64,000 bases of DNA, taken from Viridothelium virens (Eukaryota; Ascomycota; Dothideomycetes; Trypetheliales; Trypetheliaceae). The position numbers and the translations under genes are program-made. How positions within the stretch are numbered: the stretch's first letter is position 1; the number at the start of each line of letters is the position of its first letter. Under the pieces are notes generated by a model, which saw only the letters and a program-made list of their open reading frames with translations, was not told the DNA's origin and ran no database searches. The DNA lies in NCBI GenBank assembly GCA_010094025.1, contig ML991772.1, positions 558,001 through 622,000 of the forward strand, given 5' to 3'. Below, piece by piece: positions 44,524 to 49,719 of the stretch.

Positions 44524-45891
44524 ATGCCCACCCACCCAGCCCTCTCCGACTCTCCCCGCCCTTCTCCTCCCGACTCTCCCCTCCGCATCGCCATCATCGG
44601 CGGCGGCATCGCCGGCCTCTCCCTCCTCCTCGGCCTCCTCGCGCACACCTCGCGCTCGCACCTACAGCCGCACCTCTACGAGGCAGCGCCCGCCTTCGCA
44701 GAGATTGGCGCAGGCGTCGCCTTCGGCTCCAACTCCATCGCCGCCATGCGCCTGCTCGACCCGGCCATCGCGTCCGCATACGAGCGTCATGCGACCTTCC
44801 ACGCCGATCCGGACGCGCGGAGACGCAAGGTCTGGAGTGGGTATCGCATGGGGATGGATGGGAGGGCCCGAGGACGAGGGCGAGGGAGTGGTGGCGAGGA
44901 GAGCGGGAATAGGTTGAAGGCGGGAGATTTCATTCATGAGGTGCGCAGTGAGACGGAGCGGAGTAGTGTACACAGAGCGCGGTTTCTGGATGCAATGGTG
45001 GAGTTGGTGCCGGAGGGGTATGCGAGTTTTGGGAAGAGGGTGGTGGAGGTGAGGGAGCGGGTTGGAGGGGATGGGGAGCTGGAGGTGCGGTTTGCGGATG
45101 GGTCGATGGTGTATGCGGATGCTGTGGTGGGGTGTGATGGGGTGAAATCGAGGGTGCGACAGATTGTGCTGGCGGGGGAGCCGGAGATGGAGCCAGTGTT
45201 TACGGGAAAGTATGCGTATCGGGGGTTGATACCGATGGAGGAGGCGGTGGAGGCGTTGGGGGAGTGGACAGCAAAGAATGCACATTTTCACTGGGGATAT
45301 GATGGGCATGTGCTGACGTTTCCGATCGAGCATGGTAATACCATGAACGTAGTTGCTTTTCGAACCAAAAAGGATGGCGAATGGGAGTATGGTAGCCAGT
45401 GGGTATTGTCGGGAAACAAAGAGCGGATGCTCAGTGACTATGAAGGCTGGGGAAAAGAGGTCCAGTCAATATTACGAATGATGAGAAGCCCTGACATTTG
45501 GGCGTTGTTTGACCATCTGCCTGCGAAGACTTACTACAAAGGTCGCATATGTCTTTTGGGTGATTCAGCGCATGCAAGTACTCCTCATCAAGGGGCAGGC
45601 GCTGGTATGGCGATTGAAGATGCCTTTGTGCTTTCCCGATTACTTGCTAGAATTAAGGACAAGCGACAGCTAGAGAGAGCGTTTAGCGCGTACGATACCG
45701 TCAGAAGGCCGAGAACGCAAAAGCTAGTGAGTACCAGCAGAGATGCGGGTTGCTTATATGAATTTCAGAAGGAGGGTGTTGGCGATGATGTAGAGGCGCT
45801 GAAAAAAGACTTGGATGGCCGAATGAGGTGGGTTTGGGATGCAGATCTAGAAGAGCATGTAGGAGAGGCACTTAAGACTTTTGATGGTTGA
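44524..45891 (+). CDS. FAD-dependent monooxygenase (salicylate hydroxylase-like)
   Basis: A single exon encodes 455 residues from MPTHPALSDSPRP. The FAD motif GGGIAGLSLL is near residues 25-34. The middle motif DAVVGCDGVKSRVRQ carries the DG sequence of class A flavin monooxygenases, and GDSAHASTPHQGAGAGMAIEDA near residue 345 is the second FAD/ribityl motif. This is the family of salicylate hydroxylases and related aromatic hydroxylases that use NAD(P)H and O2; the substrate is unknown. No neighbouring gene suggests a catabolic or secondary-metabolite cluster. The first ~300 bases are strongly C-rich and the next ~500 strongly G-rich, after which composition is ordinary. Confidence 0.9.
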   Translation: MPTHPALSDSPRPSPPDSPLRIAIIGGGIAGLSLLLGLLAHTSRSHLQPHLYEAAPAFAEIGAGVAFGSNSIAAMRLLDPAIASAYERHATFHADPDARRRKVWSGYRMGMDGRARGRGRGSGGEESGNRLKAGDFIHEVRSETERSSVHRARFLDAMVELVPEGYASFGKRVVEVRERVGGDGELEVRFADGSMVYADAVVGCDGVKSRVRQIVLAGEPEMEPVFTGKYAYRGLIPMEEAVEALGEWTAKNAHFHWGYDGHVLTFPIEHGNTMNVVAFRTKKDGEWEYGSQWVLSGNKERMLSDYEGWGKEVQSILRMMRSPDIWALFDHLPAKTYYKGRICLLGDSAHASTPHQGAGAGMAIEDAFVLSRLLARIKDKRQLERAFSAYDTVRRPRTQKLVSTSRDAGCLYEFQKEGVGDDVEALKKDLDGRMRWVWDADLEEHVGEALKTFDG

Positions 45892-46366: not shown

Positions 46367-47409
46367 TCATATGTCATCCATGTTGCCCGCAGCCTCGTCC
46401 TCGTCTCGTGAATCGTAGCTGCCCACCGAACTCATCTCGTCATCTGATTCTGTGTCTTCACCAGCCTCGTCGGCAGCTTCTTTTGAAGCGTAGCGTGAGA
46501 CATACTCTAGTGCATATGTAAGCGTCTGATGTCCCACAACAGAGATATTATAGATTTTATTCCAACCTTTGACCTTGGCATCATAGCTTCTTGGCTCTCT
46601 CATTAACAACGCAGCGGCTTCACCGTTGAGAGGATCTGTTGGATTCGGATAACGGAGAAGCTGAGGGAGAAAAACCTCGAAGATGTTGATCATGTCGTAC
46701 ATTGGAGACCACGTTTGGTTGATGACATCGAGACAGACAGATCCGGAGCTATGTAAAGTAAGCCGTTGAATTCTGCATACGGTTTGAGGTCTGTTCATAC
46801 AGTTCGTCGATGTTTGGATGAAATATTCGGTTGACGAAACCAATGCTTGGACTCTTGTACGGATATTGGTCGGGCAGTTCTACGTGAATCTTCCAGAGGC
46901 CTCCCGAAAACGGTGCTATGACGTGCTCTTTAGTAAAAAATCATGAGGTTTAGGAGAAACACTAACTCTCCTCGGGGCCCTTGAAGCGCACGTAGAATTC
47001 TTGCCTGTTGCAGTCAGCGTCGTTGAACAACTTAGAGTCGCAAATTTGTCCTTCGGGAGAATACTAACACTAGGGCTGTGTTAGCAACTGAGCAAAGGAG
47101 CAAAGATAGAGCCATGACTGGACTTACTGTTGTCATTAACCAACGTCACCTCATAATCGCTCATCAACCTAGACAAGCACCATCAATAACACACGGTCAG
47201 ACATTTCATGATCATATTCAGCTACTTGAAGTAGCCTAACGTACATCCTGCTCAAGAGTTAGTAGGAAGCCCAAATGTATTTCTTCAAAGTCATACTTCA
47301 TCACCTAAAGGCGGCAAATTTTGATTAGCCAATCATTGATTTTGATATATTCATTCTTTATGGAGAGCCAGCTCACATCGGTTTCAATCCGACGCTTTGG
47401 ACTGCTCAT
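46367..47409 (-). CDS. ubc8: Ubiquitin-conjugating enzyme E2 Ubc8 (UBE2H type)
   Basis: The best model has eight exons: 47409-47377, 47304-47297 (8 nt), 47168-47128, 47069 (1 nt), 47004-46967, 46915-46801, 46748-46567 and 46506-46367, total 185 residues. It reads [40 protein letters not shown], closely matching yeast Ubc8. The catalytic Cys is in [15 protein letters not shown] (residue 84), preceded by the HPN motif. The tail is acidic ([21 protein letters not shown]), as in other fungal Ubc8 proteins. In yeast, Ubc8 works with the GID ligase in degrading gluconeogenic enzymes and can ubiquitinate histones in vitro. The one-base exon is inferred from frame and conservation. Alternatives are a 7-nt exon (NDNTLVQEF) or a direct jump to 47000 (NDNKFYV), both less like the family. 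The seventh intron (60 nt) is in frame and stop-free. Confidence 0.88.
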
Positions 47410-48584: not shown

Positions 48585-49719
48585 ATGTCGCGTGCTTTGA
48601 CTCTGCTAACTCGATCGATTGTTTGTCCCAGTATACCAATAACAGGACAGAGGTTTCCCACTCTGTTGCTAGGAGATCCTGTCCGCCTCTTGCGCCATGT
48701 CAGCGGCAATGAAACTGGGCGAAATTGGAGGCCTCAAGTCCGCTACAGCGCACATTCGCCCTTGGGTACACCTAGTGCGCCAGCACGAAAGAAAGTCACA
48801 CTTCAGACTCTACGAACATTGTACCAGAAAGGCGAACCAATAACAATGATCACCGCCCACGACTTTCCATCCGCTCATGTGGCAGATCAAACAGGCATAG
48901 ACACAGTCTTGGTAGGAGACAGCCTTGCCATGGTCGCCCTTGGCATGGAAGACACCAGCGAAGTCGTTCTCGAAGACATGATCCTCCACTGCCGCTCCGT
49001 CGCACGCGCAACAAAAAGCGCCTTCATCGTAAGTCCCCTCCCTCTCCCTCACCCATCCCCTCCCGCACTAACTATCCTCCCCACAGATCGGCGACCTCCC
49101 AATGGGCTCCTACGAAATCTCTCCCACCCAAGCCGTCACCTCCGCCCTCACCATGCTCAAACAAGGCCGCGTACACAGCATCAAGCTCGAAGGCGGCGCC
49201 GCCTACACGCCACACATCCGCGCCCTGACCACCGCCGGCGTCCCCGTCCTCAGCCACATCGGGCTCACACCGCAGCGACAGCACAGCCTCGGCGGCTTCC
49301 GCGTACAAGGCAAGACGGCCGCCGGCGCCCTCACAGTCCTCGACGACGCGCTCGCGGTGCAGGCGGCGGGGGCGTGGGGTGTCGTGCTCGAGGCGGTGCC
49401 CGCGGAGGTGGCGGCGCTGATCACGAAGCGTCTGCGGATTCCAACGATTGGGATCGGGGCGGGTGCGGGCTGCTCGGGTCAGGTGCTCGTGCAGGTGGAT
49501 ATGAGTGGCAATTTTCCGCCTGGCAGGTACTTGCCGAAGTTTGTGAAGCGCTTTGGGGATGTGTGGAGGGAGGCGGAAAGGGCGGTAAGCGCGTATCGCG
49601 ATGAGGTGAAGAGGGGCGTGTTTCCAGCCGTGGAGCATACGTATCCGATGCCGGAGAAGGAGTTTCGTGAGTTTGAGAGGATGGTGGAGGAGAGGCCTGC
49701 GAGTGAATTTGGGATGTAG
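48585..49719 (+). CDS. panB: Ketopantoate hydroxymethyltransferase (mitochondrial type)
   Basis: Exons 48585-49028 and 49087-49719 give 358 residues. The amino terminus MSRALTLLTRSIV is Arg-rich with no acidic residue, a typical mitochondrial presequence. The PanB fold follows: KVTLQTLRTLYQKGEPITMITAHDFPSA, TVLVGDSLAMV (metal-binding Asp), then across the 58-bp intron FI/IGDLPMGSYE, KLEGG, HIGLTPQ and GIGAGAGCSGQVLV. PanB adds a hydroxymethyl group to 2-oxoisovalerate to make ketopantoate, the first committed step of pantothenate and coenzyme A synthesis. The second exon changes from C-rich to G-rich. Reading through the intron would produce a false frame ending at 49604. Confidence 0.95.

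What the first reader, a model, noticed from the sequence alone, without database searches (positions are those of the whole stretch)
47005..47127. A one-nucleotide micro-exon in ubc8
On the minus strand the exon ending at 47128 leaves GAC AAC A, and the exon starting at 47004 begins G CAA GAA TTC. Joining them directly breaks the frame. The 122 bases between contain a branch-like gctaac, an acceptor ending at 47070 (ccctag), then a single T (47069), then gttagt, the same donor hexamer used by the gene's fifth intron, then gctgac and an acceptor at 47005. Using the single T makes A-T-G, a Met, giving NDN-M-QEF, exactly the residue found there in yeast Ubc8 (NDSMQEF). Both flanking introns would be of normal size (58 and 64 bp) and the total coding length is divisible by three. 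Exons this small are very rare in any organism. Alternatives that keep frame (a 7-nt exon, or an acceptor at 47001) give less conserved proteins.
Basis: partly seen in the sequence, partly recalled or inferred. Interest (0 to 1): 0.78.

Follow-up and report, generated by a model that had tools for sequence, protein, structure and literature searches.

The report
One-base exon in fungal ubc8 gene
A ubiquitin-conjugating enzyme gene in this lichen fungus appears to contain an exon of just one DNA letter, and relatives across a large group of ascomycete fungi seem to share it, with most of the deposited gene models examined here wrong at exactly that spot.

Summary
In ubc8 (minus strand; contig matches Viridothelium virens), exon 4 (…AAC A, ends 47128) and exon 6 (G CAA GAA TTC, starts 47004) cannot be joined in frame. 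A lone T at 47069 between CCCTAG and GTTAGT, with a CTRAC motif in each intron (58 and 64 nt), completes an ATG (Met29). Of 17 in-frame canonical paths only this gives NDNMQEF; comparable sites occur in 3 of 40,000 random 123-nt GT..AG stretches.

Among the best 120 homologues, 47 of 47 transcript-type proteins carry this Met, but only 12 of 69 genome-derived Pezizomycotina models read it correctly, while three ordinary junctions of those 69 are intact in 67, 67 and 69. Many wrong models continue M-Y/F/S-V, as reading past T|GTNNGT predicts. The same gene has a 3-nt and an 8-nt exon.

Best reading: a constitutive 1-nt exon, probably as old as the Pezizomycotina, spliced in two consecutive steps. 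New member of a known, very small kind. No RNA of this species and no other fungal genomic DNA could be examined.

The parts
47377..47409 (-). exon 1, 33 nt, [11 protein letters not shown]
47305..47376 (-). intron 1, 72 nt, GTGAGC..TTTAG
47297..47304 (-). exon 2, 8-nt micro-exon GTGATGAA
47248..47296 (-). intron 2, 49 nt, GTATGA..ACTAAC..GCAG
47245..47247 (-). exon 3, 3-nt micro-exon GAT, donor GTACGT; restores VMKMLMSDY; skipping it keeps the frame
   Evidence: only one of three canonical paths found gives VMKMLMSDY; 47 of 47 transcript-type homologues intact here
47169..47244 (-). intron 3, 76 nt
47128..47168 (-). exon 4, 41 nt, ends GAC AAC A (phase 1)
47070..47127 (-). intron 4, 58 nt, GTAAGT..GCTAAC..CCCTAG, branch-motif A 11 nt from the 3' end
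47069..47069 (-). exon 5: single-nucleotide exon T, middle base of the ATG codon for Met29
   Evidence: comparative
47005..47068 (-). intron 5, 64 nt, GTTAGT..GCTGAC..CAACAG, branch-motif A 9 nt from the 3' end
46967..47004 (-). exon 6, 38 nt, begins G CAA GAA TTC
46916..46966 (-). intron 6, 51 nt, same donor GTTAGT; no CTRAY/TTRAY motif found
46801..46915 (-). exon 7, 115 nt
46749..46800 (-). intron 7, 52 nt, GTATGA..CATAG
46567..46748 (-). exon 8, 182 nt (contains SVCLDV)
46507..46566 (-). intron 8, 60 nt, GTTGGA..GCACTAG; no in-frame stop, so an ORF caller reads through it
46367..46506 (-). exon 9, 140 nt, acidic C-terminal tail, stop

Best explanation
[quoted passage not shown] It supplies the second base of the Met29 codon, so joining exon 4 to exon 6 without it shifts the frame. 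The arrangement is old and probably dates to around the origin of the Pezizomycotina. Because acceptor and donor are one base apart they are unlikely to be held by two splicing complexes at once, so the introns are removed one after the other by intron definition, most likely intron 4 first: this turns AGT|GTTAGT into CAT|GTTAGT, a better match to the U1 consensus. Shown here: the anatomy, uniqueness of the path, chance level, and the contrast between transcript-type and genome-derived proteins of relatives. Inferred: splicing in this species, consecutive removal and its order, constitutive use, the age.
For: Gene model and phases. One of 17 in-frame canonical paths yields NDNMQEF; 3 of 40,000 random stretches look as good. 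Homologues visible: transcript-type 47 of 47 carry M; genome-derived Pezizomycotina 12 of 69; the same 69 at exon 6/7 67, exon 7/8 67, exon 8/9 69 intact. Of 136 genome-derived Pezizomycotina proteins read NDN-M-not-Q; 19 of these continue with a residue (Y/F/S) whose codon can begin with T, and 18 of the 19 with one whose codon begins with G, as T|GTNNG read-through predicts. Transcript-type proteins identical over the C-terminal part to wrong models: P0006 to A. niger/tubingensis/carbonarius models P0161/P0125/P0119, P0005 to P. chrysogenum P0031, P0030 to Morchella importuna P0151, P0002 to Lepidopterella P0115; P0002, P0005, P0006 and P0030 read NDNMQEF. Of 40 named proteins outside Pezizomycotina, 38 fit the intact pattern; the other two, plant records P0001 and P0041, read INDGLNEF and INDGMQEF, uninterrupted. 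Donor match to CAGGTAAGT 5 of 9 before and 7 of 9 after intron 4 removal, highest of the eight donors.
Against: No RNA from this species was read. 'Transcript-type' is inferred from source tags (jgi, lgn, ena, merc), mostly short contigs and uninterrupted ORFs. No fungal genomic DNA other than this genome was obtained (searched prokaryote and viral contigs and confirmed nothing; metagenome scans were capped at 0), so the T in other species is deduced from protein read-through. Five of the 69 models read NDNRQEF, which no canonical path here explains; those lineages may differ, or the models may keep one acceptor base. Two of 21 read-through models (P0081, P0183) do not fit T|GT. GTTAGT was not enriched in a rough donor scan (rank 84), though intron 6 uses it. 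The 12 intact models may be lineages that lost the introns; two of them (P0047, P0105) also carry lgn or jgi tags and may be transcript-supported. The order of removal is not shown; in potato invertase the second intron goes first (cited in PMC4674806).
Confidence: 0.92

Rival explanations
1. One 128-nt intron (47127-47000) using the AG inside GCAAG, giving NDN-K-FYV and no micro-exon. This is the junction of the deposited model P0024 (Viridothelium virens).
For: Canonical GT-AG and in frame. Seven of 69 genome-derived models read NDNKFYV.
Against: Deletes conserved Q-E and replaces M. 0 of 47 transcript-type homologues read NDNKFYV. P0005, transcript-type and identical over the C-terminal part to model P0031, reads NDNMQEF where P0031 has NDNKFYV. 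P0024 also lacks VMKMLMSDYE.
Confidence: 0.03
2. A different in-frame path: a 7-nt exon CCCTAGT (NDNTLVQEF), or exon 4 extended to 47124 (NDNSKQEF).
For: Both are canonical and open. Five of 69 genome-derived models read NDNSK followed by QEF or EF at this junction.
Against: 0 of 47 transcript-type homologues carry them. Donor GTCCAG for NDNSKQEF is poor. The 7-nt exon needs an acceptor that ends 4 nt after the branch motif GCTAAC.
Confidence: 0.02
3. Assembly or sequencing error, or a decayed gene, with a missing base near 47004 or 47128.
For: A missing T at an ordinary junction would look locally similar.
Against: The same junction is wrong in 57 of 69 genome-derived models of many genera. 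The rest of the gene is open over 186 aa with SVCLDV intact. No second close copy in this genome: the next best match, a different E2, has E=7e-17 at 36% identity; further partial matches have 31-51%.
Confidence: 0.01
4. Mechanistic rival: the 1-nt exon is real but intron 5 is removed first, leaving ..CCCTAG|TGCAAG for an ordinary second reaction.
For: Each intron has its own donor, CTRAC motif and acceptor. In potato invertase the downstream intron of a 9-nt exon goes first (cited in PMC4674806).
Against: U1-consensus match of the intron-5 donor is 5 of 9 until intron 4 is gone, then 7 of 9; a weak hint only.
Confidence: 0.35

Closest known systems
APC11 and VPS55 single-nucleotide exons of land plants (PMC4674806, PMC8831610)
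   Same: 1-nt spliceosomal exon needed for the frame, conserved in land plants, missing from reference annotations.
   Different: Plant genes coding other proteins, supported by RNA-seq, RT-PCR or base-change constructs; VPS55 is alternatively spliced in some plants. Here fungal, with short introns, not yet tested by RNA in this species.
CYP621A single-nucleotide exon of Fusarium (PMC12940212, 2026)
   Same: Fungal, 1-nt exon supplying the middle base of one codon in a conserved motif, wrong in nearly all of its gene models.
   Different: Described in one genus, a P450 its authors say is rarely expressed, exon base G. Here an E2 enzyme, exon base T, apparently across several Pezizomycotina classes, with 3-nt and 8-nt exons in the same gene.
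Stwintrons (spliceosomal twin introns) of fungi (PMC5639578, PMC6616335; passages seen)
   Same: Two spliceosomal introns at one place removed by consecutive reactions.
   Different: In a stwintron the internal intron splits a splice element of the external one; here each intron is complete and one coding base separates them.
Single-nucleotide exon between group II introns in fungal mitochondrial rnl (PMC12308204; passages seen)
   Same: One exon base between two introns.
   Different: Group II introns in mitochondrial rRNA, not spliceosomal.

Membership tests
single-nucleotide spliceosomal exon | one base flanked by AG and GT, with complete introns of ordinary size on both sides | tested here: met
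single-nucleotide spliceosomal exon | base needed for the reading frame and conserved protein | tested here: met
single-nucleotide spliceosomal exon | present in mature mRNA of the same species | not testable with these tools
   no RNA of this species held; transcript-type proteins of relatives, 47 of 47, carry M
single-nucleotide spliceosomal exon | changing or deleting the base changes the mRNA accordingly | not testable with these tools
   bench test
stwintron | internal intron interrupts donor, branch or acceptor of the external intron | tested here: not met
   both introns carry uninterrupted donor, CTRAC motif and acceptor; T lies outside both
recursive (zero-length, AG|GT) splice site | acceptor and donor directly abut, no exon base retained | tested here: not met
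   AG-T-GT; T is needed for the frame
Ubc8/UBE2H E2 enzyme | UBC domain and closest similarity to Ubc8/UBE2H | tested here: met
   PF00179 E=1.9e-39; best PDB matches E2-24 kDa 8pmq and UBE2H 8pjn
Ubc8/UBE2H E2 enzyme | active-site Cys in SVCLDV (role recalled) | tested here: met
   translated exon 8

The most novel reading that the evidence does not exclude
The chain of 8-, 3- and 1-nt exons at the start of ubc8 is a splicing checkpoint kept since the Pezizomycotina ancestor: any failure to include the single T shifts the frame and should send the mRNA to decay, so the amount of Ubc8 (the E2 of the GID/CTLH ligase in yeast, recalled) reports on spliceosome performance.
Probability: 0.1. Interest if true: 0.85.

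Novelty: new member of a known kind. Interest (0 to 1): 0.7.

Why it matters
The papers I read describe only three nuclear loci with 1-nt exons (APC11, VPS55, CYP621A). This would be the second in a fungus, in a gene found across fungi, and by the evidence here shared by several Pezizomycotina classes, so it can be tested in laboratory moulds. [quoted passage not shown] It also means that this junction is wrong in 57 of the 69 genome-derived Pezizomycotina models seen.

Tried and rejected
Looked for genomic DNA of other fungi: scans of genome contigs (prokaryotes) and viral contigs confirmed no relative. The own-genome search showed no second close copy. A de novo donor-hexamer scan over 264 kb was too weak to be useful (GTAAGT first with 15 of 93, GTTAGT rank 84 with 3 of 46, overall hit rate below the shuffled baseline). 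A chaperonin family search meant to collect proven introns gave few, and I did not pursue it. Considered and rejected: direct join (frameshift), 7-nt exon, extended exon 4, acceptor inside GCAAG, stwintron, zero-length recursive site. The enumeration took GT-AG introns of at least 40 nt and internal exons up to 15 nt only. NDNRQEF models (P0019, P0023, P0042, P0053, P0092) remain unexplained.

Counting notes: one search's pattern scored P0033 as broken; its sequence reads DDNMQEF, so 12 of 69 are intact, as. One search's stricter pattern scored 67 of 68 transcript-type proteins; by reading the sequences the miss is P0099, VNNNMSEF, which has the Met. It also scored two plant records (P0001, P0041) as not intact although they are uninterrupted. 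In one search the 47 transcript-type proteins fit the control patterns in 45, 43, 46 and 47 cases; I did not examine the misses. One search used a read-through protein as query and an intact one, so those sets are biased; the main ratio uses, whose query contained the Met. Only the best 120 of 5722, 759 and 1197 hits were visible in the three searches. I divided the proteins into transcript-type, Pezizomycotina and others by source tag and organism name; the proteins are 90%-identity clusters, and a few species occur more than once.

Full report
WHAT IS THERE. On the minus strand, 47409-46367 encodes a 186-aa Ubc8/UBE2H-type ubiquitin-conjugating enzyme in nine exons of 33, 8, 3, 41, 1, 38, 115, 182 and 140 nt (561 nt with stop). 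It matches PF00179 (E=1.9e-39), and its best solved relatives are the E2-24 kDa chain of 8pmq and UBE2H of 8pjn. The window's contig (G000 C2) is 997,231 bases long, the same length as the contig of P0024, a Viridothelium virens protein whose part from FYVRFKGP to the end is identical to my model; the species is a Dothideomycete, order Trypetheliales.

THE SINGLE BASE. Exon 4 ends AAC A in phase 1, and exon 6 begins G CAA in phase 2. Joined directly they lack one base. The 123-nt interval reads GTAAGT…GCTAAC…CCCTAG-T-GTTAGT…GCTGAC…CAACAG. Enumerating canonical GT-AG paths with one or two introns (each at least 40 nt, internal exon up to 15 nt) gives 17 open in-frame paths; one gives NDNMQEF, and it is the 1-nt exon. 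Among 40,000 random 123-nt GT..AG stretches from 264 kb of this genome, 3 contain a T exon with GTNNGT donor and a CTRAY motif before both acceptors; among 40,000 shuffles of the interval, 12 do. With only AG-T-GT required, about 4% do, so the bare motif alone would be weak evidence.

OTHER SMALL EXONS. Between exon 1 and exon 4, three canonical paths keep the flanking protein, and only the one with an 8-nt exon (47304-47297) and a 3-nt exon GAT (47247-47245) gives VMKMLMSDY. Skipping GAT keeps the frame and loses one Met (VMKLMSDY). In one search's genome-derived Pezizomycotina set 40 of 69 are intact here, and in the transcript-type set 47 of 47. Ten of 136 genome-derived models show a read-through that fits GAT|GTNYG or similar (M followed by Y or C, then V, A or E, by a pattern that excludes L, M, F and S after the M).

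COMPARATIVE EVIDENCE. A search with the 186-aa model found 5722 homologues, of which the best 120 could be read. I divided these by source tag and organism into 47 transcript-type, 69 genome-derived Pezizomycotina and 4 other named proteins. All 47 transcript-type proteins carry M at the junction; 12 of 69 genome-derived ones are intact. The same 69 are intact at exon 6/7 (67), exon 7/8 (67), exon 8/9 (69) and at an in-exon control (69). The damage is therefore concentrated at the micro-exon junctions. The wrong residues are informative: NDNS-K/E/M/T is what results from reading into the exon-4 donor A|GTNNGT, and R before QEF is what reading through the exon-6 acceptor AG|G CAA gives, as in the paths. 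Of 136 genome-derived Pezizomycotina proteins read NDN-M-not-Q; 19 continue with Y, F or S and 18 of those with V, A or G, as T|GTNNG demands. The fitting ones include Aspergillus, Penicillium, Hortaea, Salinomyces, Coniosporium, Aureobasidium, Septoria, Fusarium and Sclerophora. Wrong models without that signature include Pezizomycetes (Tuber, Terfezia, Morchella; classes of Tuber and Morchella; Salinomyces is a Dothideomycete, Sclerophora a Coniocybomycete, Geoglossum a Geoglossomycete; other class assignments recalled). Transcript-type proteins identical over the C-terminal part to wrong models exist for black Aspergillus, Penicillium chrysogenum, Lepidopterella and Morchella, and they read NDNMQEF. 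Outside Pezizomycotina, 38 of 40 named proteins fit the intact pattern; the other two are plant records, uninterrupted but with other residues (INDGLNEF, INDGMQEF).

LIMITS. The transcript-type label is inferred. No fungal genomic DNA other than this genome was obtained (metagenome scans capped at 0). For Pezizomycetes the data show that the junction defeats gene predictors while the Morchella-type mRNA reads M; they do not show the T itself. Twelve intact genome models may be correctly annotated or may have lost the introns. Five NDNRQEF models are unexplained: a G micro-exon, or a model keeping the last base of the acceptor, would give the R.

HOW IT LIKELY WORKS. Acceptor CCCTAG and donor GTTAGT are separated by one base, so both introns are unlikely to be recognised there at once and removal should be consecutive, as Guo and Liu argue for APC11 (PMC4674806, parts 1 and 2 of 3 of the text read) and as described for stwintrons (passages of PMC5639578). 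Removing intron 4 first improves the intron-5 donor match from 5 to 7 of 9, which hints at, but does not show, that order. Potato invertase is a precedent for the opposite order (cited within PMC4674806).

WHAT IS KNOWN. Nuclear 1-nt exons in the papers seen: Arabidopsis APC11 (PMC4674806), land-plant APC11 and VPS55 (PMC8831610, passages), Fusarium CYP621A (PMC12940212, abstract and parts 1 and 2 of 3 of its text), whose authors call it the first for a fungal gene. A mitochondrial group II case is in PMC12308204 (passages). Stwintron papers PMC5639578, PMC6616335 and PMC9024468 do not contain the word ubiquitin in their main text. A Trichoderma micro-exon paper (PMC11121469) was seen as a listing only. 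The search 'ubc8 + microexon' found 0 papers; searches for 1-nt-exon wordings (all hits listed; 25 of 124 listed) and broader ones (20 of 74 and 15 of 2,055 listed) showed no title or abstract start about ubc8. Only open-licence papers are in that library.

VERDICT. A well-supported single-nucleotide exon, new as a locus as far as these searches go, of a known but tiny kind, with evidence for much wider conservation than the published fungal case.

Noticed in passing
window 47304-47245: An 8-nt exon and a 3-nt exon (GAT) precede the 1-nt exon; 52 of 136 genome-derived Pezizomycotina models read one residue short here (VMKLMSDY type), as skipping the 3-nt exon would give.
   Followed up: yes
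window 46566-46507: Intron 8 is 60 nt without an in-frame stop, so an ORF caller reads straight through it.
   Followed up: partly
window 44524-45891 (+): FAD-binding monooxygenase-like ORF (PF01494) downstream of ubc8.
   Followed up: no
window 48585-49719 (+): Ketopantoate hydroxymethyltransferase (PF02548) split over two frames, probably by an intron near 49047-49102; divergent neighbour of ubc8.
   Followed up: no
proteins P0019, P0023, P0042, P0053, P0092: Deposited Ubc8 models reading NDNRQEF; no canonical splice that I could derive explains the R. A 1-nt exon G instead of T, or a kept acceptor base, would give it.
   Followed up: partly
window 658 (+): The only other CTRAY..YAG-N-GTNNGT match in the window.
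   Followed up: no
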